A stretch of DNA of 64,000 nt from the NCBI GenBank assembly GCA_017506865.1, contig JAFCMP010000423.1, forward strand, positions 1 to 64,000, read 5' to 3'. The translations under genes were made by a program, and so were the position numbers. This stretch comes from Tribonema minus (taxonomy: Eukaryota > Sar > Xanthophyceae > Tribonematales > Tribonemataceae). This document shows, one piece after another, positions 36,682 through 61,100 of the stretch (its first letter is position 1; each line of letters opens with the position of its first letter). The notes under the pieces are model-generated. The model ran no database searches. It worked only from the letters and a program-made list of their open reading frames with translations, and was not told the origin of the DNA.

Positions 36682-36719
<38 letters not shown>

Positions 36720-37941
36720 GTCGCTCCCCCGGTGGAGCGCTCGCGACTGCCGTTGGACGGGGAAAACCGCGGACTGCTGCCGCCGCCGCCATTGACAGCG
36801 GCAGCAGCAGCTGAGCCGTTGCTGGTGGCAGCGCTCCGCTGACCGCGGCGCATGGCGTCGATGGTGTCGCTGGTGATGTGGTACGCAGCGGGCAGAAACG
36901 CGTTGAAGCCCAGTATGAGGTCGTCGTTGCCGCCAAAGATGCTGCACACGCGCCGCACGACGCCCTCCGGTGGGAGCTCTCCCTGCTTGTAAAGCTGCAA
37001 GACAGAGGTACCCGCAATGTCCAGGGTTAGTGATCGGCGGCATCAGCGCTGACTGGCTGAGGGGTGACCTCACTTTTGAGTCCAATAGTGCCGATGGGCG
37101 ACGACACATTTGCCGTCAGGTGTGGTCCTATGCGCTAATCATTGCCCCTCGCATAGCCAGATACGATTGCATGGATGCACCTATACAACAAGCTTGGAGT
37201 GAGGTTTGCACCTCAGGGCGTCTACTGAGAATTTGGTCAACGTCAGTAAAGGAGTAATGGCATACTTATTTGATTCATGTACAAGTCACAAGACTGATGA
37301 ACTTGCCAATCTGCAGTTTGGTTCTGGACTTCAGCAACATTTTCGACTATCAGAAACAGGTCAGGGGTTCATTACTGCATGGTAGCCATTGTCATATATG
37401 CGAAGTGGAGTGCTGCTATTGAAGTAGCAATTGACCTAGCTCATCACGTCAGAATTGCACTAAGTGCGCCATTGTATCTTCATACATGTCACGCTTACCG
37501 CAGCATCGCGTGTTCACTACTATGAGTGGGTGACTCACAACTTTAACACCCACTTAATTGGCTGCAGTGATCAGTGAGTCACAACTTCAACACCCACATA
37601 GTCGCCGCAGCCAACAGTGCTTCAACCTGAACACAGCTGCTGTACCACTACTTCAATCACTTGAAACAGTTCAGGCCATCAGCGTTCAGCTGCACTCACG
37701 TTGATGATGTCGAGAAACTCGCGGTAGATGGCGGGCTGCTCCTTGTAAACGGTGCGAACGCGGTTCAGGTACATGTAAGCGTCATCAATGCTCCGCGCCC
37801 CATCTGCATCATTGTCCTCCTCATCGTCTCCCCCTGCTTCCCCCTCACTCTCCCCCCTTTCCCTTCTCTGCCCCCCCCCACTTCTGCCCGGCCTGGCAGT
37901 TCCTCTTCTGTTGGCGCTTTGCTGGCTGCTGAGGCCTGCGC

Positions 37942-37972
<31 letters not shown>

Positions 37973-40900
37973 GCTGCTGCCAGACTTCCTGTGCGAGCGC
38001 GATGAGCTGCCGCCCGGCCCTGAAGAACCCGATCGCTGCTGCTGCTGCTGCTGCTGCGAAGCGCGCTGCTGCTGCGACCGCCTGCCGCCGCTGCTGCTGC
38101 TGCTGACGCGCGCCGCCGACTGCGCAGCGTGCGCGCCGCCCCCGCCGCCGCCGCCTCCGCCGCCGCCATAGCCACCTGAGCTCGACCGCGAGCGCTGCGC
38201 CGCCGCCGGCGCGTATGGCGCCGCAGCAGCGCCGCCGCTGTCGCCGAGGCGTGCGCTGCGCGCCATTTGCTGGAAGCGCGGGATGTCGGCCTCCGTGAAT
38301 CGCAGCGGCTGTGGCAGGAACGAGTTGAGGCCCATGACCAGGTGCGGGCGCCCCTCGAATAGCTCGACCACTTGGCAGATGACCATGGCCGGGGGCGCTG
38401 TCGGGTCTCTGAAGACCTGATCAAAGTTCAACAATGACAGCAAGTATTGAGTTGTCAGCAAGCTCGATCATGACAGCAAGTATGGGGGTTGTCAACATTG
38501 GTCATCGTGATGTACGGTCAACTCACAACATCGTACCTGGTGGTGCCATTATTCGACGTGCACGTTGTGGAATGGCGTCGTGACGACAGTCGAGACAAGC
38601 TCCTTTCAACCGCTCCACGTGTGCCAGCATATCATCCTGCACTGTACACCACATTTTGTGTCTTGTTCTACTAGTGAGTATCGCTTGCGTCAAATGCCCG
38701 AGGTGATTGGCGTCAAGCTTGCTACCAGGATCTCCACGTATCTTATGACAAATAGAACATGTCTCAATGCGCAGTAAAAATCAACCCCGTCGCAAACTGG
38801 AATCTCTCTCTCCCGAACTTTGTAATCAGCACCTTAGGGTTAGGGTTAGGGTTAGGGTTGCCACGCACGTCCTTGAGAAAGTGCACACGTTGAGTTGAGG
38901 TAAGGCGAGGATCGAAAGCTCAACTTCTACTTTAAACTAGATAATTGACACAGATGGGCCTAGTGCCCTATCATCAGCATCTATGAGATACTTTCTTCTG
39001 TTGCATCTGTCGCATTGCAGCATTTTGCACATATATGCTGTACCTGTTTACTCACCTTGACGGCCTTCACAAACTGGTCGTAGATTTGCGGCTTGTCCAG
39101 AAACTCCGCTTTCACCTGATCCAGGTACTGCAGCGCATCGTACACCGTCACTGTCGCCACACTTCCTGCTCCGCCACCCCCACCCCCCTGCGCACCGCCA
39201 CCAGCTGCTGCTGCTGCGCGCTGAGCACTGCTGCCTGCTGCTGCTGCTGCTGCCGCTGCGCCGGCGCCGCTCGCCGTGCGATGGCCCTGCGGCGGCGGCA
39301 CCTGCGCCACTGGCCTGCGCCCCTGCTGCTGGTGCTGCTGCTGGTGCTGCTGCTGGTGCTGCTGCTGGTGCTGGTGCTGCTGCTGCTGCTGGTGCTGGTG
39401 CTGCTGGTGCTGGTGCTGCTGCTGATGGGACTGCGCCGCACGCCCCCTCTCCCCCCCGCCACCATAGTACGGCTGCTGCCACATGCCCGACTCCCCCCCT
39501 TGAGAAGCCGCCCTGCCGTTGTTGGCACCCGAGTAATTGGGCATCGCGGAATTGGGGCGTGCGTTGTGCGCGCTGCCACCGCCGGCCGCAGCTGCAGCAG
39601 CGGCGGCGGCGGGCTTTGCGGTGCGCGCCTGGGCAGTTATGCTTTCTACAGTTACATCCGGCGGCAGGAATGCGTTGAAGCCGCGAAGGAGTTGCGGGTG
39701 GCCGTGGAAGAGCTTCACAACGCGGCCCACCGTCTCCGCGGTCTCCACGTGCTCTGTGCGGTACGCCTGCCGCAGTGGCGTGGAGCGGTGTGCACCAGAA
39801 GCAACAGTTGGGGTTGGGGTAACGCTTCAGACACCCTACGTTTTGAAACTTTGACAGGGCATGTGAAACGCGACCTGGGCATGCAACGGCAGAGGCGTGT
39901 GCTGAGGTGCTCAAGATCGCGTACATAGTGCTCTTCAAACATGCGTAGCGTGCCTGCCGCCTAGCCCCAGCCAGCCCCCATGCAGTACTATATACATTTG
40001 GCTTGTCGTGCAACAGCAGTGAAAGCTGCACATCCATGATGGACGTTGCCACAAGCAGAATCGTCAGTTTCAATTGGCGACACAGCGGTGTTCCAGAGCT
40101 TCTACACTATGCGGCGACGCGAGCGTCATTATTGCTGCCGCCAGACATTGCCTTAGCCAGCACGCAGCCACACTCAGCACAGCGGCGCAACAGTGCCAGC
40201 GTGCACCACGGCGGTCGAGGCCATCCTGTTCCTCACCTTCATGATGTCTACAAACTCCATGTACACGTGTGGGGAGTCCAGAAACTCCAGCCGAACCATC
40301 TCCAAGTACTGCAGCGCAACATCAACTTCAACATCCGGCTCCTCCGCTGCCAGTGGGGGGTGCGCTCGCACCGGTGAGGGGCGCAGCGGCGCAGCATTTG
40401 CCGTACGCGCTGTCACCGGCGCCTGTCCGTATGACGCTCTCTCAGTGCCCATTGATATCGACGGTGGGTGCAGACTCTGCTGCAGAGATGGCGTGTGCTG
40501 GTGCTGCCTGGGGGCTGGCTGCTGTGTCCTTGATGCCTGTTGGCGTTCATGAAATTCGTATATGACCATTGCAATGGGTTCAGGTGAGATTGAGTGGGAT
40601 GGTTGGTGCATGGGGACATGCCAAAGACAGCAAGCAATTTGTGTCACTGTCTCGGTGACAGCTCACAGGTGATGGAGCTGCAGAGCGGAAGGTGCTGCCA
40701 CGCCAACACCAACAACTGGTGCCAGCAACGGAAAGCACACTGCTGCTGACCGCTACAGCATCGATTACGACCAACCCCGCCGCAGGGGGTCCAGGGTCGG
40801 TTGTTAATGACTGAAGTTGACACGCACAAACCGAGCATGGCAACACTCGGCACACTGACCATTCGCTCTACAAACGATTTTTCGTGATGAAAAGGCACAT

Positions 40901-41447: not shown

Positions 41448-42169
41448 TCATTTCACTCCTGTCCAAGGAATCGAAGCAAGCCACTCTTCTGCTTTCAGTC
41501 CGCGCACCGCGACGGCCTGTCTGCCAGGGGCCTGAGCATCAGCATGCCAGTCAAATGATTCCAGTGCTTCAAACACGGCACAATCTGCAATGCTTTCGTT
41601 GTCAAATGATGGTACGTCATGTAACGCCAGCACTTCTTCAGCCTGCGTCGCAGTCATGTTAAACAGACGTCCTGCCACGCCGCCATCAGGTCGCTGCAGG
41701 CGCTGCAGCCACGTTAACAATTGTTAGTCTTGTACAGTAAGCCTCGCGCTTCTGTCACTGCATGGTCACGCAGGCTCGCCAGCGTTACCGCCATGGAGCG
41801 GTTCATCGCTCTTTGCACACGAGCGGCTGCAGCACCGCCGCCGCGCGCGCTGCCGCTGCCGCTGTGCATCACACCGCTGCCGCTGCGAACCGCGCCGTCA
41901 CCATCGCATGTGCTGCCACTGACACCATGAGGCGCGCCGCTGCTGGCGTTGTGCGCCGTGCTCTGTTGGTCATCGATGAATGTCACGTTCGATGGTGGCG
42001 CAATGAAGCAAAGCACCACATCAGACCAGCCCTCGTCAGAATGCCAATACTGGCGCGGTTCATCAGGGTCCTGCTGCGTGGGTAGACGCGATGGGCCAAT
42101 CGCATTGCCATTCTGCTTACCTGCCCTGCCAGTGCAATGCACCATGGCATCAAAATCCATGACGCGCAT
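41448..42169 (-). CDS. Unrecognised protein-coding frames upstream of SIN3
   Basis: Two adjoining minus-strand frames look coding but match no family I know. The first (41714-42169) starts MRVMDFDAMVHCTGR and has DPDEPRQYWHSDEGWSDVVL, a Ser/Gly-rich stretch and RVQRAMNRSMAVTLASLRD. The second (41448-41720) has MTATQAEEVLALHDVPSF then ADCAVFEALESFDWHAD and ends EEWLASIPWTGVK. They could be exons of one gene or decayed pieces; no convincing splice pair joins them. They lie between SIN3 and a Ty3/gypsy-type fossil on the same strand, so they could also be a poorly recognised part of that element. The function is unknown. Confidence 0.35.
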
Positions 42170-42311
42170 TGCCTAACACAGCCTGAGCAGCTTGCGGTTG
42201 TGCCCAGTGGTCATGAAACGTCAGCAACCACCTGAGCGCTGCTGCGTCTGATACCAAGTGTCACTGGGTTGCCGCACACATAGGGGGTACAGTGGTCGAT
42301 TGCGAGCTAGG

Positions 42312-43804
42312 CACTCCAGCGCTATTGCGCCCATGTGTGAGTCTAGCTGAGAGGTCAACTTGCTGAAGTAGCCAACTACTACTTCGCGTACCTCCTCCCC
42401 TTCTCAAAGTCGACTGTCAGCGCCCCGTTGTTACGCATGGCAATCTGGTGTGTAGTGGCCATCTATTTCAATGAGAGGTCGAAGCTGTCTTAGCACGCCG
42501 GCCACCGCTGTCTTTGACGCGTCAGCATAGAGCACAAAGGGCAATTTGAAGCCCGGGTGCATGACCATGCTGGTGCCACACATCACTCCTTGAGCTACAT
42601 CACTCCTTGAGCTGCCTGTCGCTTCGCGTGCCACCCTACATGCATGTACTTACTGGTAGCTTTGGTGAGAACTATGCATTCTTTCTGAAGTCTTCCATGT
42701 GACAGCGGTAGTATTTGAAGCAGCCCATTACGGTCTGCATCTACATCTTGTCTGGCCTCTCCGACGCCACCACCTGCGGCGATATGTCCATCATGGCATA
42801 GGCCTTGGCTGTGTCTGGGCGCACTTCTCCTGTGCCAACGAATAATGTGTCCCAGAAACTTGACATTATTTGTGCTTGAACAGCTTAGGGTCAGGGTTAA
42901 AGTTGCACTTGTGACACGCCACACTCATGTTCGCTGCGCGGATCTGCGTAGCTCGTCGTCAAGCTGCTTGCTGTACTCATCGACTGACTTGCTGTAGATG
43001 AGCAAATCATCTATGTACGTACACCATGCCGCGTGACACCATTGCTTCGCGAAGCACATGGTGCACGAGATGCGTAAAGTGCCGCGGCAAGTGGACAAGA
43101 CCAAATGGCACCACTGTGTACTGGGAGTGTACTACGCGCAGCTCGGCACACAAAACGCTGTCTTTGCGTTGGCGGGCTCAGCAAGTGAGATCTGGTAGTA
43201 GCCTGCCGCCAGGTGAATTGATGACATGACCTTTGCTCTGCGCACGTTTTGCAGCATACCATTGATGTCAAGAAGGCCGTGACGGAGTTGAGGTTGCACA
43301 AGTCAACGCAGAACCTAACCTTGCCATTCTGATAGACAAGCACTGAGTTGCCTGCTCACCGGACGCCACCTCATGGCCGCGTTGCAGCGTGGCCCTGACA
43401 TGGTCCATGATGCAATCTGCCTCTTTGCATGCTCAATGCCGCATGGCGGACCTAACCTTATCAGCTGTTGCTGTTGGCGGTTTGGTTGCGCAGCGACCGC
43501 TATATGTCCTTCTGGCATCTATATGCCACATGGCGGCCTAGCCTTATCAGCTGTTGTGGTTGGCGGTTTGGCTGCGCAGCCACCGCTATATGTCCTACTG
43601 GCATCTCAGGTCAGTGCAGCAAGCGTTCTTAGTGTCGGCAGCAAACACATCCATGTTTGCGTGCAGCCCCCATAGCATCTCATGTATGAGCGGCTCACCG
43701 TCCAACGCCTTGCGCAGCATGGGGTTCACGCCCCCGTCTAGCAGGAGCATCTCGCGAAGATCATTGATGCGCATGTCGTCACGCTGCCGCCACGAGTGCC
43801 GCAT
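42312..43804 (-). mobile_element. Ty3/gypsy-type retroelement fossil 1 (pol fragment)
   Basis: Pieces of one pol region are read on the minus strand. They comprise the segment before reverse transcriptase (LREMLLLDGGVNPML), a reverse transcriptase part (YQNGKVRFCVDLCNLNS, KFLGHII) and an RNase H part (FVLYADASKTAVAGVL). The pieces match the larger plus-strand element at 45.3-53.2 kb closely enough to be the same family. The copy is broken, with at least about five interruptions, and looks the older of the two. No LTR is recognised. Boundaries are approximate. Confidence 0.75.
43436..43608. repeat. Tandem duplication, two units of about 87 bp, inside fossil 1
   Basis: The unit starting ATGCCGCATGGCGG at 43436 recurs as ATGCCACATGGCGG at 43523, with several substitutions. 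It is more diverged than the 87-base duplication near 27.1 kb. Confidence 0.8.
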
Positions 43805-45303: not shown

Positions 45304-46898
45304 ATGCCTTCATCGTCAGGCAAATCAAAGCGCAAGAGCAGCTCGGGATCATCCCGCAAGGGCACCGGGCTCAAGCTGGTCGAGCACGGGCCGGTTAAGC
45401 CGCCTTCACGGAAGAGCGGCAAGTGCAGGCAGGATGGCCAGCGTGACGGCGGGTTTGCCGGCTTCAACCCTGCGGCCATAGGCCGCAACCGTAGTGCTAG
45501 CGACGCTGGCAGTACCGCTGCGGCGCACCGCGGCGCTGGACTGCGCGCCGCTGGCATGGGCGGCGGTGATAAAGGATCCGGCGCTGGCGGCGCGCGCGGA
45601 AATGCCACTGGCGCACGTGCTGGCAGTAGCGGCGCGTGCGGTAGCGCCATCGGCGTGGGCAGCGGCGCTGGCGGTGCGCGCGCAGGTGCTGGCGCTAGCG
45701 GCGCGGACGGAAGCGCCATGGGTGCGGGCAATGGCGTTAGCAGCGCGGGCGGCGGTGCCAACGGCGCAGGGGGAGGCCGGGATCGGTGGCGCCGACGGCG
45801 CGGGCAGCGGCGCTACTGGCGCGGGCGGTGGCGTCAGCGGTGCAAGCGGCGGCGCTAGTGGCGCGGGCATTGGCGCTGGCAGTGCCGCTGGTGGAGCGCG
45901 CTGCGGTACCAGCTGCACGCGCAGCGGTGCCGGCGGCGCGAGCACTGGTGCTGTGCTGCGTGACGCCGAACAACGCGCCGGCGACGCAGGCGGGAATGGC
46001 GACAGGAGCGGTGGTGGCAGCGCAGAACGCGGCGCAGGCGGCGAGGTGTCGGATACGGAGGTTGACACGGACGAGGAAGTCGACGCCCTCCACGACTTCC
46101 GCCAGTACTGCGAGGAGGTGTGCCTCACGCACACGGCAGCCCTGAAGGCTGCGGTCGACGACAAGGCGCGGCTGCTCGCCGCTTTGCACGTCCTAGACAC
46201 GCAGTATGCGAAATCCATGCCGGGGGCGCCAGACGCGGGCACACATAGAGGTGCCTTTCTCCACAGTGGCCACTCCAAGGAATCGGGACGGCTGCAGGAC
46301 CTCATCGTGGTGCAGAGCGAGACCATCATCGCCGAGGACGCGCGCGTGCGGGCCTTGGGCGAGCGGCTGCCGCGCATGGCAAAGATGCAGTACAGCAAGC
46401 ACCGTGGTGGCGACAGCGGTAACAACGCGGTGCAGGAGTGGCTGGACCGGGGCCACGCGGTTGCGGCACTTGAGCAGCTGCTTGAGCACGGGCTCAAAGT
46501 CGCCTACTCCGGTCTTGGCGGCCGACGCGCGAGCGCTGCCGGCAGCAGCGCTGCTAGCGGCGGCGGAAGCGCGTCTACTAGTACTGGCGGCGCCGGAGAG
46601 GGATCTGCGCAAGGGCTGCCGTGCGACGGCGGCGGCGGCGGCGGCGCCACCAACGACGGCTTGCCTCACGCCTGGCTGCCCGGCGAGTCAGCGCTCAGCG
46701 ATGGCGGCAGCGACAGCGGCCATGTTCCGGGCACGCGGCTTCAAAGGAAAGGCCGGCGCGCGCACAAGGTTGGCCACAAGCACTGCGTGCGCCGCGGCGA
46801 CGATGGCAATGACGGCAGCAGCAGCGGCAGCGGCGGCGCCAGCAGCGGCGACGACGGCGGCGATGGTAGCGGTGGCGGCAGCAGCGACGGCGGCGACG

Positions 46899-46937
<39 letters not shown>

Positions 46938-48430
46938 ACAGCAGCAGCAGCAGCAGCAGTAGTGGTGACAGCGGCGACGATTCAAGCGACGACGGCAGTT
47001 CGTGCCGCCGCCTCAAGCACAAGCGCAGGCGCGACGGCAAGTGCAAACGTTACGCCACACACTCTAGCAAGCACCACAAGAGCAAGCAGCACGAGCACGA
47101 CGTGCGCCACTCTTGCGACGCAAAACGTCGCTCCGCCATGTCAGTCGTCAAGCGCAACGCCGCTATCAGGGGCATCGCGCTACAGCTGGACATCAACAAC
47201 GGCCCCTGCGCGGACAGCTTCGCCATGCTGGAGGAGCGCTGCATACAGGACGGCTTGGTACTTGCCGGTGACAACAAGCTGGTAATACTAGTAGAGCACA
47301 TCGTACAAAACATGAAGAACCGCCCGGACGACCGGCAGCAGATATGCGGTGTGCGGTTCCCGGACAGCAACGGGATCACCACTTTCTTCGAGATGTGCGC
47401 AGACTACGAGTGGTGCAAGGCGGCACTGATCCACCACTTTGACAGCCCGCAGCAGCGCGAGAGAGCGTGGCATGGGTTGCTGCTACTGGTGCGTGCGCCG
47501 GGCCAGCACCCGCTCAAGTACAGAAACATGGTCCTCGCGGCGGTGCGCGCTGCCGCGAAAACTACGGACTCGCAGAGCTATGAGGCTTTGACGCGGGGGA
47601 TGCCGAAGCAGGTGCTTGCGGTGCTAGAGGAGCAGAAGATCAAATCCCGTCTGACCCGCGGCGACACATCTCTAGATCACGCCATCACGGTCGCCGCCGA
47701 CACCTACAACGCTCAGCTTGCCAAGGCGCAGCGCGACTACCCGGTGGCAGCGCTCAGCGGGCACCTGTCGGCTGCACAGGCCAAAGACGTTCTCGACGTG
47801 GTCACGATGGAGAATTGCATGGCCAAGGCGTACTTGGCATCCCTGCCTGGTCACCGCTTGGGGGGCGACCTTGGCAGGCATGATGGCAGGCGCGCCGATC
47901 GGCAGGGGGAGGGGCGCAGAGACAGGCGCGGGCCACGCCTGAGGGCGTTTGGGGCGCGCGACGGCGTCCCGAAGCGGGCCCCATTCATGTGCTGGGCGTG
48001 CAAGCGCCTTGTCGAGAACGCCGACACGGGGGACCATCATGGCACGCAGGAGTGCTTGGACTGGTCCAGGCGGTACAAGCAATACACCCACTACGACGCC
48101 TGCCGTGACACCTGCCTGGAGGTGGGGCGCCTTCAACTCAAGTTGGACAGGTTGGGTGGCGACGCATCCAAGCTCAAGGACGACCCCAGCTCCATGCTTA
48201 GCCGACCTATGCACGAGTGCACGCCTCGGGGGCCGCCAAGCGGCAGCTTTACCCCGCGGGAGGGTTGCGACAGGAGTAACAACGGTGGGCGCGGCGGCGG
48301 GTGCGGTGGTCGGGGCGCTGACCATCGCCAGGACGGAGGACGCGCTGGCTACTACTCACTCAGGGCGTGGCGGTGGCCGCGAGCGCGGGCGCGGAGACAG
48401 TCAGGAGCGCCGCCGCGACGAGGATCGTGA
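45304..48430 (+). mobile_element. Retroelement 2: gag-like region
   Basis: A long frame has an Ala/Gly-rich N-terminal half, a Ser tract (about 46900-46960) and a basic stretch. It continues into a capsid-like part with FFEMCADYEWCKAALIHHF and RAWHGLLLLVRAPGQHPLKY, the kind of sequence seen in Ty3/gypsy gag. A zinc-knuckle-like Cys/His set (CWACKRL then HHGTQEC) lies at about 47988-48053, with wider spacing than the usual CCHC. A second overlapping frame begins before this one ends; Ty3/gypsy elements are known to use frameshifting or read-through between gag and pol. Confidence 0.6.
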
Positions 48431-48569
48431 TCGCGGGCGCACGCGCGACGATCACCAACGCGCGCGCGGCGATGGGGATCGCCGTGGTGGGAATGACCAA
48501 CGCCGCCGAGGTGAGAGTTTGCCGCCGAGCGCGCGCGTTGCGGCGGTGGTTGCCGGCGACGCGCAGCAG

Positions 48570-49045
48570 CGCTCAACTAGTGGCGGGGCAAGGGGAGGCC
48601 AGCGTGGCAGGGGTATGCAGGCGTGTGCAGCTGCGCAGCAGCGCGCTGATGGGGCGGCTGATGTCGGGGCGCAGCAGCGCTCAGCTAGTGCAGCACCAGC
48701 TACAGCTCGCGTGCAGCAGCGCTCAGATGATGGTGTGCGCGCGCAGCAGCGCTCCGATGGCGCGCGTGTGCAGCAGCGCTCTGACGGGAATGGCGCACGC
48801 ATGCAGCAGCGCTCAGATGATGGTGTGCGTGCGCAGCAGCGCTCCAATGGCGCGCGTGTGCAGCAGCGCTCAGAGAGTAATGTGCGCGTGCAGCATGGTG
48901 TGCAGCAGTGCTCAAATGGCGACGACATGCGTGCGCAGCAGCGCTCAGATGGCAACACGTGCTTGCAACAGCGCTCAGGCAGTGCTGGCACGCAGTCTCG
49001 CGCCGATGAGGCTGGCGCGCAGCAGCGCGCATCACGTGTAGTGGT
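48570..49045 (+). repeat. Retroelement 2: (x)QQRSDG-coding short tandem repeats
   Basis: A GCGCAGCAGCGCTC-like unit recurs more than a dozen times at spacing of about 27-45 bases. In the open frame it reads as repeats of QQRSDG with variable joiners (for example VRAQQRSDGARVQQRSDG), rich in Gln, Arg and Ser. It is followed by a polyproline stretch (about 49195-49260). It looks like a disordered linker before the methyltransferase domain. Confidence 0.8.
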
Positions 49046-49289
49046 GGCAGTGCCGGAGCGCTGCCATAGCACCATTGCGGAACGTATTCATAGGATCACA
49101 CCCAACTTGGCACCTAGACCATCATTGAGCCGCCTGGCCGCGTCTTCCCTCAGCGTCCCGCTTGACACGGCTGGCGAAGACATGGTGCTCACTCCGCCTT
49201 CCCCCCCACCGCTCATTCCGCCACCTCCCCCCCCTCTTGGGCCGCCGCCCCCCCCCCCATTGCAGACTGTTAGCACGCGCTAGACGGAG

Positions 49290-50086
49290 AATGGGCCAGC
49301 ACGGGTGCTGCGCCACGCGTCGCTGTTCAGCGGCATCGGCGGCTGGGAAGCGGGGTTTGAGCAACTTCACCTTGACGGCGTGCAAGTGGACACGGTCTTG
49401 GCGGTGAACAACGACCCCATCGTGACGGCGGCGTACAGCAACACATTTGCGGGCAAGGGGAAAAGGGTGCTTACAGCCAGCGTTGGCGACGCCAAAGTTA
49501 CCGAGGCAGTCGCCGGCGCGGCGCCGGATGTTGTCACCTACTCGGCGCCATGCACGGACTACGCCACGACGGTGTCATCAGGGCGGGCGAGGCGGCCGAG
49601 TGCATAATGGCGGCAGTTAGCAATATCCCAGCGGGGCGGGTGAAGTTTGCACTTGTACAAAACATGCGCCACATGCTGCGGTCATCCACGTGGCAGACGG
49701 CCAAGCGTTTGTTAATTAGCAGGGGCTACGCGGTGTCCACGGCGCTTCTGCCGGGCAAGCTTTTGGGGTGCCCTTGTCGGCGCACGCGCGTCTACTGTGC
49801 CATTGTCAGGGTTCGGGAGGGAACTAGACAGGCGCTGCAGCGTTTTGGCGCGTTTCTAAATGCATACATACGGCTCTGCAAACCAGTGGCTTTGATCAAT
49901 GCGGTACCTGATCTTGGTCCTCTGCTGTTCCTCAAGCCCCGCGCCAAAGGCAAGAAAGGCGTGTATAGCACTGCTGGCTTGCTTCCTAGCCCTGTTAGGC
50001 GTTACACTGGCGTTGTTGGCAGTGAATATGTGCGCAGTGCTCAGGATGACGGTCCAGTAGAGGATTCAACTGTGACCCACGCATGA
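49290..50086 (+). mobile_element. Retroelement 2: C5 cytosine DNA methyltransferase domain
   Basis: Motifs of the C5 methyltransferase family appear in the right order. Motif I is SLFSGIGGWEAGFEQ, the AdoMet-binding loop, followed by an acidic/Asn segment (VLAVNNDPIVTAAYSNTF) like motif II-III. A Pro-Cys site (DVVTYSAPCTDYATT) stands for motif IV with the catalytic Cys. A segment VKFALVQNMRHML stands for motif VI, and LLGCPCRRTRVYCAIV for motif VIII with its paired Arg residues. It lies between the gag-side repeats and the protease/reverse transcriptase region, in the same orientation. The reading is interrupted, so this copy is taken as a fossil. Captured cytosine methyltransferases are known in a few algal and dinoflagellate retrotransposons; this would be a separate case. 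Confidence 0.8.
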
Positions 50087-50289
50087 TCAGCTAGCCAGGG
50101 CCATGACGTATGGCAAGACTTTGCCAACAAAACTGCTCAAGAGCAAGCTCAGCCTCATGACTGCCAATCTCGTTATGCCGCAAGCAGCAAAGCTGGTACT
50201 ACAAGCAGGGGACCCGAGCGTCATTGAGCTGGCGGACAGCAAGACGATTGCCATTCACGGCGTGGTCACGCTTTGGTTTCAGTGAAAGG

Positions 50290-53165
50290 GTGGCAAGCAG
50301 TGCCGGCACAGGTGTTACATAGTGGATATGCCTGGCATTGATGCCATCGTCGGTACTGACTTCTTTGTGTGCTGTGGCTCCGTGATATCATATGCCAGGT
50401 GCAAGCCCGTTTGCGCTCATGGGGAGTTTTGGCCCAGAAATACCCATGGTGTCTGAGGGGACCCCGAGAGTTGCAACGTCAAACGGCGCGGCACCGTGCG
50501 CAGCTCTTCAGAGGCAGAGGTGCCAGCACCTCGCATCGCGCCGCCAGGCTCACCGAAGATGTGGTCCTGCAGCCGTTCGAGGAGCAGCTGCTGGAGGTCG
50601 GTCTACATCCAAAGTTGGCGGGCGTATCGGAGTATGACGGTATTCTGGAACCTGGCAGTTCTGCGGTGATGCAGAGTTTGGTGAGTCGCGGCGCCAAACT
50701 AGCTCTGACCGCGGTGCGTGTCGCGTCGGCAAGCGTGGTTTACACAAAGGTGGTCAACACGTCGACGGTGCCACTTTTCATCAAACGCAACACGCATTTA
50801 GGCAGTGTGAGGCCGGCGCGGGCCGGTGAAGTTGTTGAACTTCAAGAAGCCAGTTTGCCAAAACTCCAAGACTGGCTGTTGAGGTTGGCAGCGCAACAGG
50901 AGAGTCCCTAAGTGCAGGTGGCGGCGATTGCTACTGCATACCGGATGCAATCTGATGCAGTCATGGCTGACGCACTGCAACAGGATCTGCACAAGCACTT
51001 TTAGCAGCCCGGCGGCAGCGCGGCACGCAATGCTAGCAGAGGCGCGGCGCGCGATGCTGGCAGTAGCGCGATGCGCAATGGTGGCAGCAGCGCAGCGCGC
51101 AATGCTGGCGGCGGTCCGGCGCGCAATGCTAACGGCAGCTCGGTGCACAATGCTGGCAGCTGCGCGGCGCGCGGCGTCGGCTGCAGCACAGCGCGCGATG
51201 TCGGCGGCAGCGCTGCGCATGACGCTCACAGCGGCGCAGCGTGCAACGTCAGCAGTGCGGCGCGCAATATTAGGGAAGCGGCGGCGCGCACGGGCGCGCG
51301 ACACGCGTAGGGTGCAGCAGCAGCGCGGCGCGTAACGTTGACGGCAACGCGGCGCGTGATGGCGGTGGCACATGTGTGCGCGCGGCAGCAAGCGGTGAAA
51401 GCGGCGGCGCAGTGCGTGACGGTGATGCTTTCATAGCAAGTGGCCACGGCCACGACGGCAGCACAATTGGCGCTAGCAACGACGGCACGCCGGCATGCGC
51501 ACTAACGGTGTGCAGCGATGAGGAGCTGCGTGAGATGCTCCTACTGGGCGGGGAGGTTAACTCCATGCTGCGCGAGGTGGCGCTGGACGGCGAGCCCCTG
51601 ATAGACAAGGTGCTACGGGTACTGCGCGCAAACAGGGCCGTATTCGCGGCAGATCCCAAGAACCCACGGCGGACGCACCTGATGGAGGTGGACATAGACA
51701 CGGGCGCTGCGGCGCCAACTGCTGACAAGGCCAGGCATTGGGCATACAAAGAGGCAGAGTACATCATGGACCATGTCAGGGCCATGCTGCAACGCGGTCA
51801 CGTGGAGGCTTCCAACAGCCCATGGGCCTGCAACCCAGTGCTCGTCAACCAGAATGGCAAGATTAGGTTCTGCGTTGACTTCCGCAAACTCAACGTTGAG
51901 TACTCTGTCACCAAGCGCGACAGTCACGGCTTGGGCAACATAGATGATATGCTGCAGAAGGTGCACGGAGCGAAGGTCATGTCATCAATGGACCTGACGG
52001 CAGGCTACTACCAGATCCCACTGGCCGAGTCACCCAAGGCCAAGACGGTGTTCCGTGTGCCGAACGGCGCGCTGTAACAGGACACGGTGGCGCCATTTGG
52101 GCTTGTCAACCTGCTGGCTCAGCTCACGCGCCTCATGCACCAGGTGCTTGGGGAGGCAATGGGGTCACAAGCAATGGTGTACATCGACGATGTGCTCATC
52201 TATAGCAAGTCAGTGGAGGAGCACATCAACCAGCTTGATGACGTGCTGCAGCGGATCCACGCGGCGGGCATGAGTGTGGCGCATCACAAGTGCCAGTTGC
52301 TCAGGCACGAGGTCAAGTTTCTAGGCCACTTTGTTGGCACAGGTGGAGTACGCCCAGCCCAGATAAAGTAAATGCCACGATGAACATGTCGCCGCCGGTG
52401 GATACGTCGGAGAGGCCAGACAAGATGCTGATGCAGAACGTATTGGGCTGCTTCAACTTCTACCGCTGTCACATGTAAGACTTCAGCAAGATCGTAGATA
52501 TCTATAGATGTTACCAAACGTATTCCTATATTATAAGCACATGCATTTACAAGGATGGGGCGCGAAGCGACAGGCGGCATACCAGCCGCTCAACGAGCGA
52601 TGTGTGACGCCAGCATGGCCATACACACGGATTTCACGTTGCCCTTCATGCTCTAACTGACGCGGCAAAGACCTGACAGCGTGAGCCGCTGCACGTGTTT
52701 ACTTGGTCCGACCTTTTCAGCAAGATACAAGCCTTCACCAAACTTTGTGCGCGATGGGGCTCTGCCAACTTCGAGAAGGGGAACAGGTGAGCGAAAGTTG
52801 TAGTTGGCTACTTCAGCAAGTTGAACTCCAAGTTAGACTCAAACATGGGTGCAACAGCGCTGGAGTGCTTGGCAGTCGTGCTCGGAGTTCAACTTGCTGA
52901 AGTAGCCAACTACAACTTCGTGCTTGGTGGTCGTGCTCGCGCTCAATCACTTCAGACCCTATGTGTGGGGCAACCCAGTGACGGTGGTTTCAGACGCAGC
53001 AGCGCTCAGGTGATTCTTGATACTTCAAGACCACAACAGCAAACTGCTGCGCTGGGCCATGCACATCATGGAGTACGTTGTCACGGTGCAACACAGAGCA
53101 GGCAAGCGGAACAGCAACACCGACGGGCGCGTTGTGCGTTTGCCCACGCAATAGGACCTTGAACC
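50290..53165 (+). mobile_element. Retroelement 2: protease-like, reverse transcriptase and RNase H region
   Basis: A protease-like stretch (DMPGIDAIVGTDFF, about 50325-50370) is followed by an Ala-rich spacer (about 51000-51400). The reverse transcriptase of Ty3/gypsy type follows, with NQNGKIRFCVDFRKLN, SSMDLTAGYYQIPL, the active-site YIDDVLIYSK and KFLGHFVGTGGVRP. RNase H-like remains follow to about 53165, ending with a stretch resembling the AGKxNxNADALSR end of the domain. It is broken. The same parts occur in fossil 1 on the other strand. Confidence 0.8.
52792..52920. repeat. Inverted repeat, 37-38 bp arms, within retroelement 2
   Basis: The left arm 52792-52829 and right arm 52884-52920 are inverse copies that differ by one base of length, with a 54-base loop. 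The left arm sequence is also present once in fossil 1 (about 42355-42388). So the left arm is ancestral to the family and the right arm is an inverted duplicate. Confidence 0.85.
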
Positions 53166-55104
53166 GCCGCGTCGGTACTGGCACGCCGATTGCAGAAACC
53201 ATTCATGTATACTTGCAGAAAGCGTTCATGTATGCTTGCAAGATCTGCAACAATTTAGAGGTGCAGAGACCTTCTGCGTGACGCCGAACTATCAAGCGCG
53301 ACCGCAATCTGCCCTTGGCCATGCACACTGTCAGTTACCATGCACACATACTGCCACAACTGCTAAGCGCATTGTACATGAAAGCATTGAGCATACAATG
53401 TTGTCTTTCCTGCATCTCACAATGATGCTTTTGACCCAGAGCTAGCGCCTGATTTAACCCTTGTGCCAAACAGGTTGCGCCAGTTGCGCCAGCTTGCGGC
53501 CTAAGTGACTCGTGCCGCAACTGGCGATACTCGCAATTTTACTAATGAGTGTTGCAGCATGCTCATTACTCGCGAGTTTGCCTCATATCTTGTCAGTCTA
53601 GAGTTAGTGTTTTAAATAGGGTTAGTCATGAAGATGCTAATCTTAACACTTATGTAAGTTGTGTGGGCCTTAATAATGACTGTAGAATGACTAGAAGCCT
53701 TAATGTGAGTTGCGCCAGTTGCGCCATGGTTTTAAAACTAGTTTAGCCTGACTCAAAATCCCAACCTCAATTGCGCCAAGGCCGTCTGAGTTTAGGCGCT
53801 AGCCTGTAGCCTGAGAGCGTCAAATACACTGGTGATGAAGTACGTCCAGGCTCAAGTTGAAGTCTGCCGTCATTTGCCATACTTGAGGAATTTGCAGCAA
53901 TTTACTAGCTTTGACGTAATTTGGCGTCATTACTCATCAACAACCCTGACAAAGCGTTGCGGTAGTCTGTCTGACTAGCAAGCCTGCGTGTTCACGAGCT
54001 GCACAGTTGGTGCTGCTCAAGCGTGCGTCAATCTCCATTGTGTGTCTGAAGCAGCAACCGCGCTGAGGAGTTGCTCGCATGCACAACTATCCCCATAGCA
54101 GGTGCCACGAAGCGCATCGGCTGGTATGCCCCAGCTTAAACATTGTAGTCGTTGTGGTTGCGGGAGAAGAGCTGCTGCTACCGCTGGCCGCTTCAAACAT
54201 CATTCCTGAATTGTAATGCGTGTGGCATTTCATGTGTCAGCGTTGTCTGCGCCTTCCCTCCGCGATTTTTCCATTGCACCTGCCGTGCGAAGGGGCCCAA
54301 ACTATATGCATTCCACAAAGTGCTCGGGCAGTCTGCCAGCCAGCAGCAGGTGTGTGTGCGAGCCATACATTTTTTGCATGCACCTGGTGTACGCAGTTTG
54401 CAAGTGCACCACAGCTCAGCTCAGAATATGTTGTGATACCAAAATTGCCCGAATGAACGCCCCATACCTTCAAGCTGCCAACGCCCGATGCCTTACCCCA
54501 CGCAGCAACGCCCAACAAGCAGGCTTCCACGCAGCTGCATGCCGCGGCCTCACCAGCACCATCAATGCCGTCGTTGGACGCATCTCCCGTCGCCATCACA
54601 CAAACTGTACTTGCTGCAGTGGCTGCTGCTACGCTGCTTTGGCATTCCCCAATACGCCCGCTCTGACTTGCACTTGCGCCACAGTGACGCTGACAGAGCA
54701 AGCTTGAGCAGAAGCCCCCCCCCCCGCCCCGCGCCCCCTTAACGCCCCGCTTCTTTGTGGACGCTTATGAGATGCACAGTGCGCGGAACTTTTCATCCGC
54801 ACGCACATGCGGCAGCTTTGTGTGAGAGCTGTTCGTGTAGCTAGTAAGCTTCTGTGTACAAGTTTGGTCTTCTCATGCAGCGCACAAGATGCCCACAATG
54901 AGCTCGGACTCATGTGCTTTGTACCCACGTCTGCATATCATGTCTGATGATGTTGGCTGTGCGCACTTTCAGCAGGATCGGCGGCGTTTATACAAAGCCT
55001 GGCCAATGTGTTCATTCATACAGAAGTACCTTAAATGTATGCAAGGCTGCCCCATCTGCCCTGACATGACACGCTTGCCTCTGCTTTCAATTTGCTGCTC
55101 GTAG
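53166..55104. other. Region between retroelement 2 and the kinesin motor exons
   Basis: No gene is confidently placed. The first exons of the kinesin gene (start codon and the first motor strands) should lie in the right part but could not be recognised. A cluster of GCGCCAGTT motifs lies at 53470-53790, and a proline/alanine-rich open stretch at about 54475-54680 may or may not be an exon. Confidence 0.4.
53470..53790. repeat. Cluster of TTGCGCCAGTTGCGCCA repeats with hairpins
   Basis: TTGCGCCAGTTGCGCCA occurs at about 53472 and again at about 53710. An inverse copy (CGCAACTGGCG) lies at about 53516, forming a stem with the first. A second imperfect hairpin around TAATGAG/CTCATTA follows at 53535-53575. 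It could be a degraded short DNA element. Confidence 0.45.
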
Positions 55105-58100
55105 GTATACGACGAGGTGTCTCACCCTGCGGTGCACTCACTGATGAAGGAGCAGTGGCCAGCTGGCAGCAACAATAAAACAATTGTGGCCAAGATGCTG
55201 GTGGTCTATGGCACCACCAATGCGGGAAGTGAGTACCTGTGGTGACAGTTGACCTGACCTTGAACAATTGCGGTGAAGTTTAAATTGAACTTTACATGCA
55301 AGTTGAATGCCGCATGTACAGCCATGTATGTGCTCTGAGCAATTTGCAGAAGTCACACTCAGTCTGTTGCAGGCTTTCGCCAAGTTTTGTTAATGACACA
55401 AGTACGCGTAGCGACGCAAGTGCGCACAACGACGTAGGTATGCAGGATTCTGGGTAACGACGGCTAATTACGGCAAACCCTAGTTGCTGCAATACCCTAA
55501 ACCTAGACCCAACCCTTACTAAGGCTAGGGTTAGAATGTGCTCCAGGGCGCATAGGTGCATGAAAGAGTGGTGGAAGCCTGCCCTGCGCATTTGAGCATT
55601 CTCTGCACCTTGGGGTCAGCGCACTTGTGCTGCTGCATGTCTTGATCCCCTTGCCAGTCTCTCGAGTGAGATGGGCGATAAATCTAGGCAACCCACCGAG
55701 AAACACGCCGAGGCAGTAGCGGCACTCCAAGCGAGCCTGATCACCAGCAGCAGCAACATTCGTTGTGCAGCGTCCATTTGTTGCTATTATCCTCTGTCCA
55801 GGGCATGATGCATCTTGCCACACTGCACTTGCAAGCAGACGCAGCCACCGTTCTCGCGTACCCTCAGCAGCACCGATGAAAGCGGTTCAGGCCCGAACAA
55901 GCAACCCTAGTTAGGTCAAGCCCTGAACCCCCTAACCCTACTTGTGTCAAACCCTAAGCCCCCTTACCCTACCTCGAATCTTAGGCCGTCATTGCCGCAA
56001 GTATGTACGATCCGGGCTAATAACATCATAATGCATACATACCTACCCCCAGGACCCGTCATTAACCCTGCTTTCGCCAACGTTTACTCCGTTTTTACGT
56101 GTGTCTCGCTTGCCAGTCGTTTGCCGCTGTGACCCTCTACAGTGTGTATATTGGGTAGAAGTACAAGGCCGTTAGGTTTGTGATGCGCATGAAGCTGGCA
56201 ATTGCGAAGCAACTTGAAGTTGAGCGACATCCATCTTATTGGCCAGTCGTGTATGGCCATCAGTATATGATGGGTTACAATCAAGTCTAAGGTCAGACTA
56301 ACCCTAACCTGACCCTAACATTGACGTGATCCACTGCGCTTGCTTCCTCTGCAGAGACGTTCACGGTGCTTGGGTCTGCCGCCGACCCGGGCATTCTACC
56401 GCATGCACTCATGGACATCTTTGAACTGGCACCATCGGCTGCCACCATCACCTTGAGGTGCACAGAGGTACGATGGGTTTGTAGGGTATGACTTCTTGGT
56501 AACACCACCGTATAAGTGTTGTGAATTTTTGTAATACCAGGTCATGAAGCTGCAATTTACAATATGCTCCAGGACATGGCTGTTGGTTGTTGAATGAAAG
56601 GTCAATGTCCATCTGCACTTCCTAGTGTTTCAGCCATCTGTCCATGCATTGCCTCCCACGGCGAGTTACACGTGTTGGTTAACGCGTTCGGCGCAGCGGG
56701 CCACCGGTCACGGGTTAGACCCAGTACAAAAACTATTACTTGTACCGGTGCGACAGGTTTACGCGCCATCTCTGACTCGTACGCGTACTTGTTGAAATAA
56801 TCATGTTGCGCTACTCGCGACCTGTTTTACAACGGCACTACGCACCACATCCGCCCCCATCTATTCATGAATGGCAGTTTGTTCCTCAACATTGCACACT
56901 GCTACGGTGTCACAGGTTTACAAGAACAAGGTTCGCGACTTGCTTGACATTGAAACTGCCACAGCGGACAAAAAGGTGAGCGGCGATTACTGTGGCGCAA
57001 GCTTGCTTGTGTTGCGTAGCTGTGCCACATCTGACGCAAACTTGCTGTCGCTTTGATGCTGCCAGCTCTGATGCATACAGGCACAATATGAGTGTCAGGA
57101 TTTGCAAGTCACATAGTATACATCTCAAGCCTGCTTATGCAAATCAGCGTTGATGTGCTATTGTGTTTGGGCATACTTGGGTATTGCTGTTTTGTGCAGC
57201 AGCGGGACCCAGCGCAGAATGGAGGCTATGAACGGACCATCAACAGTGCAGAGGACGGTATCGAGGTCATCCAGAATGCCCAGGCGAGAAAGTGCTTGCA
57301 TACACAGAAGGCTGGATGTTGTTGGTGCTTGTGGCCTGTTTGCAGCATTTCGCGCCAGGCCTAGGCTGCTACTCTTCTTGAAGTTCAGCAGCAGACTTTA
57401 CCGTAATGCAACTGCCAATGTGTGCACCCAGGACAGTTCACTTGTCCACTCTGTCACATCTGCAGCCTTGAGGCTCAAGCCTAAAACACATACAGCAATG
57501 AATGATTGCTCACACACTGCTCTTGACAGTCACCGCAGCAGCTTGCATGCATCTTTTTGTTTGGAGGCCTGCAAGCATGATAACATTGCCACGAGCAAAT
57601 TGTAATGCAACAAGATTGCATGTTATCATTTGTAATGCCGCATATTTACTGTTGTTCCTATTGCATAATGATTTGCCCGTGCAGGAGAGGCGGCAGACGC
57701 ACAACAACGGCATTAATGAGGTGCGTATTGCAGTTGCCAACAAAAGCCTGCATGCCTTCGTGGTGTGTGGCCTAGTCATTAGGCATTGAAAACCACAATT
57801 TCATGGCTGAACAGTGACTGCGCAAGCAATATGTGAGCTATCTGGTGTAAAAGTATCATGTCACCCAGGCTACAAGCCTTGATCCGCCCTCCAGGTCCAT
57901 GAACTAGCGGTAACAGCTGCTGTTGGTTATTGCGATTTGTATCTTGCGGGTGTCAGGCAGCTACAACAGTCTGCCGGACCTGAGTAATGGTTAACTACAA
58001 ATGTGTTCGCCTTGACTCCCACCCCCTGTACTAGTAAATAGTGCATTGCGGTGGCAGCGTGTGAAACGTAGAGTGTCACACTTCCATTGTCGTATGCGTG

Positions 58101-61100
58101 CTTCCTGTGAGGCGCAAACAGCAATGGCTACATACAACTTCATGCACCTATGATCATTCTGTTGGTGTGAATCTTACTGCAAGTTAAGCAAGTGCAAGAG
58201 TGAATGCAGTTTGCTTCACTTCTGCAAGGGGTCAAGGTGTTGACGCTCCTAATTTTGCGTAGGGTCAGGTATCATAGTCATATTCTGCAGGCACCAATAA
58301 ATATGGTTTGCCTTGCTCTTTACAAGAGGCATGCTCTGTGATCAAGTACATGAAAAGATTAAAACTGTTGTAGTGATTATGATTAATCAGCTGGCATGTG
58401 GTTCATGATGTGTTCGAGTGCATGACAACAGCTGTATGCATTCATGGGGTATCACCAGCACCCCCTGCACTCATCAAAACATTATTTGCTGCCGTAAACC
58501 CTAACCCTAAGTGATACACTTAACAATGTCCTTTTTTGCACCTCTTCTTCGCCAGACATCAAGCAGGAGCCACCTGCTCATCGATATCAGCGCCACCCTG
58601 AACGGCCAAACTGTGAGTCTTCTACAATAACTCACATGAGCACTTACCATGTGCACCAGTGCATAGTGTTGTCATAAAGCGGGCTACCGTGTGTGCAGAA
58701 TTACCGTTTGATCAAAAGTTCTAGAGGCTCTTGGAACATCTGCAGATTGCAAGACCATCGGCTGTTGACAGCACACTCCCCATCGCAGAAGGCCGGATGA
58801 CCCAGCCTTGACTTGAAGTTGCAACCCAACACAACTTCCTCCACTGCTTCTAGTATCTCAGGCAAATGACCCTCCACTGTTATGGTATCTCAGCCGAATG
58901 ACCCTCCACTGCTTTTAGTATCTCAGCCGAATGACCCTGTCTTGACCTTGCAACGCAGCGTTGCAACACTGTTCCCTTCTGCCTCCTACTTGTATCTTAT
59001 CCTGTCAGTCATAGTTTGTAGCGGCTGCAGCCTGTAGCATCATGTGGACCGCTCAAACTGCTTGCACTTGCCTATACCGGGCATCATCCTGCTTCACTCC
59101 ACTTGAGTATGCACACTGCCGCCCAGCGTGGTCTGCGGCTCTGTCCGGTATGCTGTGCCTAGTAACAAAGCGGCAGTCAAAAGAATTCAGCTTGACATGT
59201 ATACCGTTTAAATAGCGTCACCAATGTGCTGCAAAACTAGTTGGACATAAATCAGCATTGGCTTTGCAGTTCAGCAGTTGTCATGATGCTGAGCGTGTTG
59301 CCCGAGCTTTCCGTTAGTTGGCCGATGACACAGAAATGACAGTTCCCCTCCAGGGAGCCCCAACCACCCTAACCACCCACAACACTTATTATTTCGATGT
59401 TTTGTATGAGCTGAACGGAGAACAACGAACCATACTGAGGGTCATGATGAGGCGTTGCGCTCGTCATCTGCCAGTGGCACTTGTTCGCAGCGCCTGCCCC
59501 CCCCACAGCCTTTTCAGTGTAGCATTGCCACCCACGCCTTTTGCTGCCTGTTCTATGCCCGATGATGCAGAGGGAATATTGGGTCACCGACATGGCTGGC
59601 ACGGAACAGAGTAAGAAGTGAGTCACAGGCCTTGAATTTACCTACTAATAGCCAGCCTCAGCAATACATCAGCGCATGTGGTTGTCAGATTGTTCTGGGC
59701 CTTGCAATTATTGTTTGGCCCCAACATTATTCATACTTTGACAGCATTGTGTTGCGCCAGATGAAACCGCACTTTACTCGATGTTTGATGTACACCACTC
59801 AGGAGATGTTGTTACGGTACATATGCCTATGCTGGTGATGGTGATTCTTTCTATGCAATGTTGATTCTCTATGTGCCAGTGCCAGGCATGCTTGAGCTTG
59901 AGAAGCAAAGCTCGACTTCAATTGTGTCGGTTCAACGAGCAGAAAGCTACATGAACATTCTCATTGCTGTGGAGATGGGCACCACTCACTATGTCTATGC
60001 TTCTTGGCGCACATGTGTATGAGCAGCAACACACATCAATAAACTGCAGGATTCATGCTTCAAGTTGATGCAGTCTGGCATGTACGCTTGGTCTTGCCAG
60101 CAACAGTACTGTCAAAAACAGTAATGAGACAAATGTACTCCGCCCTGTCCTGCGTTGTGAAGCAATGGTGTTTGTTACAAAGCTAAACGAATAAAAACTA
60201 TTGCTGTGACTACAAAAGGTTAAACATGGTGAAGACTAAAAAAACAATTTGCAGTTGCATTATCTACAGAAAAACCAGGTCAAAAGGATGACGATTGGTT
60301 TCGGCAATTGCTTAAGTGCGCTGGTGACAGCTGACATAGCCAAAAATCCCAAAATACCGCCCGATCCGTGTTGGCGAAGCTGAAACGCCAGCCGCTGGCG
60401 TAGGTTCAGATCACTGCTTGTCTCACTATCAGGCTTACCGTGGATTGTTCACGCCTTGACGTAATGTACACTCAGCAGAGTCTTGAAGGCTTGAACACGT
60501 GGCAATTGCTCTTGTGCCTCGCAGGACGAATGGCAACCGGACACGGATGGAGGAGGCGGATGACATCAATCTTGTAAGCAATGACCAAGTTGCTCATCTG
60601 CTCAAAAAATCTTTGAAATTCTCTCTCACACCTATACATAGCAGCCCAATGACGCAGAGGTTGCAATTGAGTTTAAAGTCGCGTGCTACAAAATGGCCAG
60701 GCCTTGCATAGAGAATTTGCAGATGATCTGAATAAGATGCTGGTGAATGTGTTTACATGCGCCGTTAGGGCTTGTGGTCATTCTGGGTGTCACATGCGGA
60801 TTGTGTTATCGACGGCTTCAAAAGTTTGTGGAACAATTGGTTTCAACAGTGTGACCACAGGCTTCTGGTATAAACTGTTTGCAATGTAGCAGCTGTGACC
60901 GTGAAGCTCATCAATTGTGAATCGCTATCATAATGCCTACTGTCGTGAGTAGTGCAGTGGCGACTGCATTGTTGCCCCACTCAAGACGTTGCTGAACTTT
61001 GACAGTGGACGCCTGAGTATAAATGACCACATCGTCATGCACATATTCTTGGCTATGAGACCTCAACTTGAACATCATCAGCATCCAATCCCAGTGTTGT

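What the first reader, a model, noticed from the sequence alone, without database searches (positions are those of the whole stretch)
49290..50086. A Ty3/gypsy-type retroelement carries a cytosine DNA methyltransferase
The element's order is gag-like, QQRSDG repeats, C5 methyltransferase motifs (SLFSGIGG, SAPCTDY, GCPCRRTRV), protease-like, then reverse transcriptase with YIDD. Same strand, same GC-rich composition and its position between gag and pol argue that it belongs to the element and is not a host gene hit by an insertion. Capture of such enzymes by retrotransposons is known from Klebsormidium and dinoflagellates; in an ochrophyte-type alga it would be an independent or undescribed case. 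It suggests elements that set their own methylation state.
Basis: partly seen in the sequence, partly recalled or inferred. Interest (0 to 1): 0.88.

Follow-up and report, generated by a model that had tools for sequence, protein, structure and literature searches.

The report
Retrotransposons carrying DNA cytosine methyltransferases
Jumping genetic elements of the Ty3/gypsy kind in this eukaryote carry, inside their own long protein, an enzyme of the type that puts methyl marks on DNA, so they may mark their own copies; the copy in this window is a broken relic of such an element.

Summary
A C5 cytosine methyltransferase (PF00145) lies at window 49269-50180, between a gag-like region and protease-RT-RNase H, all on the + strand. 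The window copy is a relic: two frame changes, no integrase, no LTRs found.

The genome (158 Mb) has at least 123 scored PF00145 matches; 48 of 123 sit in stop-free frames of 2000 or more codons. In 19 of 20 fetched regions an RT follows on the same strand; in 14 of 20 both share one ORF. One element has identical 382-bp LTRs, target duplication, PBS and PPT.

One clade has gag-DNMT-PR-RT-RH-INT, another PR-DNMT-RT-RH-INT-chromodomain; a third is broken. DNMT and RT divergence correlate (r 0.90, n=9), DNMT dN/dS is 0.15-0.27 in 9 of 10 usable pairs, and the predicted fold is a complete C5 methyltransferase. Best reading: the enzyme travels with the element and methylates its cDNA or new copy (inferred).

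The principle is known since 2018 (PMC5890265). Different here: enzyme not visibly Dnmt3, canonical LTRs, two domain orders. Host not identified; the genome search became unreachable.

The parts
45482..48427 (+). gag-like ORF (982 aa, low-complexity, Ser/Gly-rich)
   Evidence: only 47984-48229 matches L023 ORF1 (32% id, E=4e-5); no Pfam match
48533..49014 (+). tandem repeats encoding QQRS-type units, between gag-like region and methyltransferase
   Evidence: the repeat finder families D1, D2, D5; read in ORF 47943-49280
49269..49568 (+). C5 methyltransferase, N-terminal piece (motif I SLFSGIGG, motif IV SAPCTDY with catalytic Cys)
   Evidence: PF00145 E=1.5e-7; 59% id to L023
49565..50080 (+). 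C5 methyltransferase, second piece in another frame (motif VIII region GCPCRRTRV)
   Evidence: 72% id to L023; PF00145 E=0.0011, below cut-off
50076..50180 (+). C5 methyltransferase, third short piece, back in the first frame
   Evidence: 74% id to L023 residues 784-817
50175..50453 (+). retropepsin-like protease remnant, downstream of the methyltransferase
   Evidence: 40% id to the protease segment of L009, E=1e-12;
50510..50905 (+). linker between protease and RT
   Evidence: 31% id to L009 polyprotein 1679-1818
51496..52790 (+). reverse transcriptase (frames interrupted)
   Evidence: PF00078 E=0.00026 on 51274-52074, below cut-off; 55% id to L023 over RT-RNase H
52791..53190 (+). RNase H part; last recognised coding piece of the element, no integrase match after it
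   Evidence: weak PF17919/PF17917, below cut-off; L009 match 63% at 52882-53190

Best explanation
The window holds a decayed copy of a Ty3/gypsy LTR retrotransposon family whose gag-pol polyprotein contains a complete C5 cytosine methyltransferase. Shown: the genome holds many such elements, some with DNMT to integrase in one open frame and one with identical LTRs; the enzyme is kept under purifying selection and has been inherited together with RT over deep divergence. Inferred: the protease frees the enzyme (or it stays fused to pol), it is packaged with RT and integrase, and it methylates the element's double-stranded cDNA or the fresh insertion, so that a new copy enters the genome already carrying host-like 5mC. 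This would shield it from recognition as foreign DNA or damp it to a level the host tolerates.
Against: No methylation, expression or enzyme data were available, so the mechanism is inference. The DNMT evolves faster than RT (between lineages C/D, E and F its identity is 0.28-0.36 where RT is 0.57-0.71). CpG is not depleted in the elements (observed/expected 0.79-1.05 over the 20 fetched regions and the window element) compared with 0.65 in the window's non-element DNA, so they bear no sequence scar of long-lasting CpG methylation; youth of the copies, coding content or another target context could explain it. In lineage C motif IV reads SSC instead of PPC. Several of the dN/dS ratios rest on few differences or on dS above 1. 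The window copy itself cannot make an intact enzyme.
Confidence: 0.7

Rival explanations
1. The enzyme is an RNA cytosine methyltransferase: it modifies the tRNA primer or the packaged genomic RNA, in the manner of DNMT2, rather than DNA.
For: A profile of the retro-DNMTs ranks DNMT2 structures first (E=8e-25, ahead of DNMT1 5e-18 and HhaI 9e-16); single L018 and L023 enzymes also hit DNMT2 first. PMC5890265 (discussion, read) itself raises RNA methylation for the LINE-borne enzymes.
Confidence: 0.2
2. The domain no longer methylates and serves as a nucleic-acid-binding or structural part of the polyprotein.
For: Motif IV is altered in lineage C (SSC) and sequence drift is fast.
Against: Catalytic Cys and E-N-V are invariant and the motif I glycines and motif-VIII arginines at least 90% kept in 15 aligned sequences (P0003 lacks the motif-VIII match), dN/dS is low, fold complete.
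Confidence: 0.09
3. A host methyltransferase gene was hit by, or lies beside, an unrelated retroelement; the neighbourhood is accidental.
For: The window copy alone is broken in several frames and could be read so.
Against: 14 of 20 fetched regions carry DNMT and RT in one ORF, several lineages, correlated divergence; a 2895-aa polyprotein (P0001) from another public contig has the same domains.
Confidence: 0.01

Closest known systems
KnitGypsy-Dnmt3 of Klebsormidium nitens (PMC5890265; abstract and sections 4, 6, 9, 11 read)
   Same: Ty3/gypsy pol with an embedded C5 cytosine methyltransferase; low Ka/Ks on the enzyme
   Different: Theirs is Dnmt3-type with a DIRS-like repeat layout (their Fig. 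4 legend); here no Dnmt3-named structure is among the 60 profile matches shown, LTRs are plain direct repeats with target duplication in the one element resolved, and deep lineages with two domain orders occur
SymbioDIRS-Dnmt3 and SymbioLINE-Dnmt of Symbiodinium (PMC5890265)
   Same: Very many intronless DNMT copies carried by retroelements in one genome
   Different: Tyrosine-recombinase DIRS and LINE elements, not LTR elements with a retroviral-type integrase
Chromodomain-bearing Ty3/gypsy elements (chromoviruses; name recalled)
   Same: Clade II has rve integrase followed by a chromodomain
   Different: An added methyltransferase between protease and RT
DIRS elements with Dam-like adenine methyltransferase (mentioned in PMC5890265, section 6, and PMC6338049, passages)
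   Same: Retroelement with its own DNA methyltransferase
   Different: Unrelated enzyme and element class

Membership tests
Ty3/gypsy LTR retrotransposon | Pol order RT - RNase H - integrase (rve) | tested here: met
   L009, L010, L015, L018, L021: RVT_1, RNase H and Integrase_H2C2 over cut-off, rve just under it; rve over cut-off in P0001. The window copy shows no integrase
Ty3/gypsy LTR retrotransposon | Direct LTRs, target duplication, PBS and PPT | tested here: met
   C435 element (L018, L032): 382-bp identical LTRs, TACA, TGG-start PBS, AAAGAAGAGGGA; one element only, of four tested this way. Window copy: none found
Ty3/gypsy LTR retrotransposon | Retropepsin-type protease | tested here: met
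   PF13975/PF13650 in L009 and L015, PF13650 weakly in L018, all below cut-off; WDTGAS/WDSGAS in L010/L015, VDCGA/VDNGA in L009/L018/L021
Ty3/gypsy LTR retrotransposon | gag with capsid or zinc knuckle | tested here: inconclusive
   No Pfam gag match in the window or in L009, L010, L015, L018, L021; position only
C5 cytosine methyltransferase (PF00145) | Profile match over cut-off with catalytic Cys, ENV and RxR motifs | tested here: met
KnitGypsy-Dnmt3 | Enzyme of the Dnmt3 family | tested here: inconclusive
   None of the 60 PDB rows shown of 82 (E up to 0.21) is named Dnmt3; DNMT2, DNMT1, bacterial enzymes, CMT-type, DIM2 and DNMT5 entries are. That Dnmt3 chains are in the PDB is recalled; no Dnmt3 control was run, no tree with Dnmt3 made
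KnitGypsy-Dnmt3 | DIRS-like repeat arrangement | tested here: not met
   Simple LTR-internal-LTR in the C435 element
Chromodomain gypsy elements | Chromodomain after integrase | tested here: met
   Clade II only: L010 and P0001 over cut-off, L015 just under. Clade I: no match in L009 with its continuation L031 nor in L018 with L032, even at E up to 5 for the continuations, only a sub-threshold Tudor-like match; the C-terminal ends of L021 and L023 were not held

The most novel reading that the evidence does not exclude
In a lineage outside charophytes and dinoflagellates, a non-Dnmt3, prokaryote-like C5 methyltransferase entered gypsy elements at least twice, once on each side of the protease, into a chromodomain and a non-chromodomain lineage, and rose to well over a hundred copies; the elements then carry most of the genome's methyltransferase capacity and mark their own cDNA as self.
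Probability: 0.35. Interest if true: 0.82.

Novelty: new variant of a known kind. Interest (0 to 1): 0.64.

Why it matters
DNA methylation is usually what a host uses against such elements. Elements that keep their own methyltransferase under selection make the question 'does self-methylation help a retroelement?' testable by changing one residue in a mobile copy. The two domain orders in one genome suggest repeated gain or reshuffling, so the gain may not be a single accident, and a copy with identical LTRs suggests that the system moved recently.

Tried and rejected
Host identity: the 18S search (RF01960 in the own genome) did not complete (23 tries); the window Rfam scan gave nothing; a paper search by assembly size did not help. 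DNMT-less gypsy elements as a comparison: the PF00078 search in the own genome did not complete (6 tries), so the share of gypsy elements with a DNMT, and whether clades I and II are sister groups among all gypsy elements, stay open. Viral and prokaryotic collections: no relative of P0002, P0001 or the L018 polyprotein confirmed in viral contigs and none of P0001 in prokaryote genomes; these scans find close relatives only. LTRs: no repeat pair between L009/L031, L010/L029, L016/L030, nor a convincing LTR pair within single loci (only internal repeats of about 220 bp at 77-78% in L011 and L027), perhaps because the stretches end inside the elements. DNMT origin: with 42 of the 120 profile-chosen or earlier references P0004-P0123 (mostly without organism name) the ten retroelement rows form one clade at SH-aLRT 82 in a quick tree; this is too weak, with long branches and a biased reference set, to decide between one and several captures. 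In the fold search no Dnmt3 entry was listed among 50 entries, which excludes nothing. A chromodomain-like stretch that I thought I saw by eye in the clade I C-termini was not confirmed. 'Host gene hit by insertion' was rejected on the genome survey.

Rows left out: the DNMT tree took 19 rows and the RT tree 14; near-identical copies L011, L014, L016, L019, L028 and (DNMT) L020 were not used, and L025 is in no tree; dN/dS left out lineage G and P0001, and 5 of 15 DNMT pairs and 5 of 11 RT pairs give no ratio (no synonymous change or saturated dS).

Full report
What is in the window. On the + strand between about 45.5 and 53.2 kb lies the relic of an LTR-type retroelement. Its parts, in order: a 982-aa low-complexity gag-like ORF (45482-48427), QQRS-type tandem repeats (48533-49014), a C5 cytosine methyltransferase (49269-50180), a protease-like stretch (50175-50453), a linker, reverse transcriptase (from 51496) and RNase H (to 53190). 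Pfam finds PF00145 at E=1.5e-7 in the first methyltransferase piece and weakly (below cut-off) in the second; the RVT_1 and RNase H matches are also below cut-off, as expected for a decayed copy. Against ORFs of a better-kept relative in the same genome (L023) the window enzyme matches at 59-74% identity in three successive pieces (two frame changes), and RT-RNase H at 55%. No integrase match and no LTR pair was found. The copy cannot make an intact enzyme.

Neighbourhood. A second, opposite-strand RT/RNase H remnant of the same broad group lies at 41934-43786. A Sin3 co-repressor gene (PAH, Sin3_corepress, Sin3a_C domains, split over four ORFs) lies at 32.0-39.8 kb on the - strand, so the host is a eukaryote. 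GC richness is shared by that gene and does not single out the element.

Genome survey. The assembly (158 Mb, 554 contigs) gave 378 first-look candidates for PF00145, of which 123 were scored, all 123 listed as over the family cut-off; this is a lower bound, and the window copy is not among them. Stop-free frames around them: 88 of 123 at least 1000 codons, 48 of 123 at least 2000, 16 of 123 at least 3000 (values copied). I fetched 20 regions of 9-10 kb, chosen for variety and partly for long frames, so the following proportions are not a random sample. An RT match lies downstream of the DNMT on the same strand in 19 of 20 (not L012), and in 14 of 20 both are in one uninterrupted ORF. Of the other 103 hits, five came as short loci (L001-L004, L008) and 98 were not read. 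Pfam domains in the five long ORFs scanned are DNMT, RVT_1, RNase H, Integrase_H2C2 and rve (rve just under its cut-off); L010 and L015 end with a chromodomain.

A complete element. For the copy on contig C435 the two ends are 382-bp LTRs, identical to each other, running TGATAC to GTATCA, with TACA on both sides, TGGCTCAGCTCC after the 5' LTR and AAAGAAGAGGGA before the 3' LTR; the element spans about C435:1694-12917 (11.2 kb), and its DNMT sits in a 3177-codon open frame. Identical LTRs mean recent insertion. No LTR pair was found for the three other elements tested this way.

Lineages and two domain orders. Clade I (C: L018, L017, L019; D: L021, L013, L014; E: L009, L012, L020, L028; F: L023, P0003 and the window) has gag-like - DNMT - protease - RT - RH - INT; the protease, with VDCGA or VDNGA at its active site, was found downstream of the DNMT in L009, L018, L021 and (as a remnant) the window, and was not detected in L023. 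Clade II (A: L010, L011, L027; B: L015, L016; A2: L024, L026 and public protein P0001) has protease - DNMT - RT - RH - INT - chromodomain; the protease segment lies upstream in L010, L015, L024, L026 and P0001. The other copies were not tested for the protease. In clade I no chromodomain was found in L009 with L031 or L018 with L032, only a sub-threshold Tudor-like match. A third lineage G (L022, L025) is broken in my fetched regions and its protease was not found.

Long association. The DNMT and RT-RNase H trees show no supported conflict: {C,D}, {A,B,A2} and the C-D-E-F group appear in both, the last at 92/93 for the DNMT and 100/100 for RT; E+F is joined for the DNMT (89/91) but open for RT, and G is unplaced. 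Across nine lineages the two identity matrices correlate at r=0.898 (100,000 label permutations, p=4e-5), 0.97 within clade I and 0.996 within clade II, six pairs each. The enzyme changes faster than RT. Nei-Gojobori dN/dS for the DNMT gives a ratio in 10 of 15 pairs: 0.15-0.27 in nine and 0.48 in the tenth, a pair with 13 differences (L024/L026); some of the nine rest on few differences or dS above 1. For RT it is 0.11-0.36 in 6 of 11 pairs. The DNMT is therefore a maintained part of the element.

Other genomes. One public protein, P0001 (2895 aa, 19.9-kb contig), has the whole clade II arrangement and 65% DNMT, 82% RT identity to A2; P0003 (38.8-kb contig) has a clade F enzyme at 56% identity over 74%. 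So relatives exist in public data outside this window's record; organism not stated, and it could be the same or a near species. None was found in viral contigs or prokaryote genomes at the sensitivity used.

How it probably works. Shown: complete enzyme, in frame within gag-pol, conserved by selection, co-inherited with RT, recent transposition of one copy. Inferred: release or fusion within the particle, methylation of cDNA or of the fresh insertion, and a gain for the element by looking like methylated host DNA or by tempering its own activity. The 2018 study reports that a DIRS-borne enzyme can methylate CGs de novo, while the LINE-borne one tested did not methylate DNA in yeast (PMC5890265, abstract and discussion). 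Against: elements here show no CpG depletion (0.79-1.05 in the 20 fetched regions and the window element against 0.65 in the non-element part of the window), though coding content and youth may mask it. RNA methylation remains open because of the DNMT2 ranking.

What is known. DNMT capture by gypsy, DIRS and LINE elements was described in PMC5890265 (abstract and sections 4, 6, 9, 11 read); PMC12344493 (passages) repeats it, speaking of LTR Copia and DIRS elements; PMC6338049 (passages) reviews accessory methylases and suggests antiviral roles; the passages seen of PMC9998398, PMC12477816 and PMC3145265 mention no gypsy-borne C5 DNMT in stramenopiles (PMC12477816 reports an N4C/N6A-type methyltransferase in a brown-algal DNA transposon). 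In the listings of the searches, in an open-licence library, I saw no description of non-Dnmt3 enzymes in gypsy elements or of the two domain orders; subscription papers and most preprints were not searched. I therefore rate it a new variant of a known kind.

Noticed in passing
window 41934-43786 (-): Second gypsy RT/RNase H remnant, opposite strand, about 50% identical to the L023 RT in its RNase H part; no methyltransferase piece of it found.
   Followed up: partly
window 32008-39826 (-): Sin3 co-repressor gene with PAH repeats split over four ORFs, GC-rich, with long runs of single residues.
   Followed up: partly
L001, L002, L003 (G000:C223:937874, C223:702740, C181:39962): Three free-standing, single-ORF (367-390 aa) bacterial-type C5 methyltransferases, best PDB match of L001 M.HhaI; apart from the retroelement enzymes in the trees. 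Host genes, transfers or contamination, not decided.
   Followed up: partly
G000:C89:3753 and 16316: Two DNMT hits with the same score 12.56 kb apart on the same strand, as in tandem elements.
   Followed up: no
L022, L025: Third DNMT-RT lineage (G), RT about 33-36% to the others, broken in both fetched copies.
   Followed up: partly
L031:3-839 and L032:1433-2599: C-terminal ends of clade I polyproteins give a sub-threshold Tudor-like match (PF21743, E=0.008 and 0.0017), where clade II has a chromodomain.
   Followed up: no
window non-element DNA 1-31000 and 54500-64000: CpG observed/expected 0.65 with TG/CA excess 1.5, compatible with genome-wide CpG methylation but not proof.
   Followed up: no
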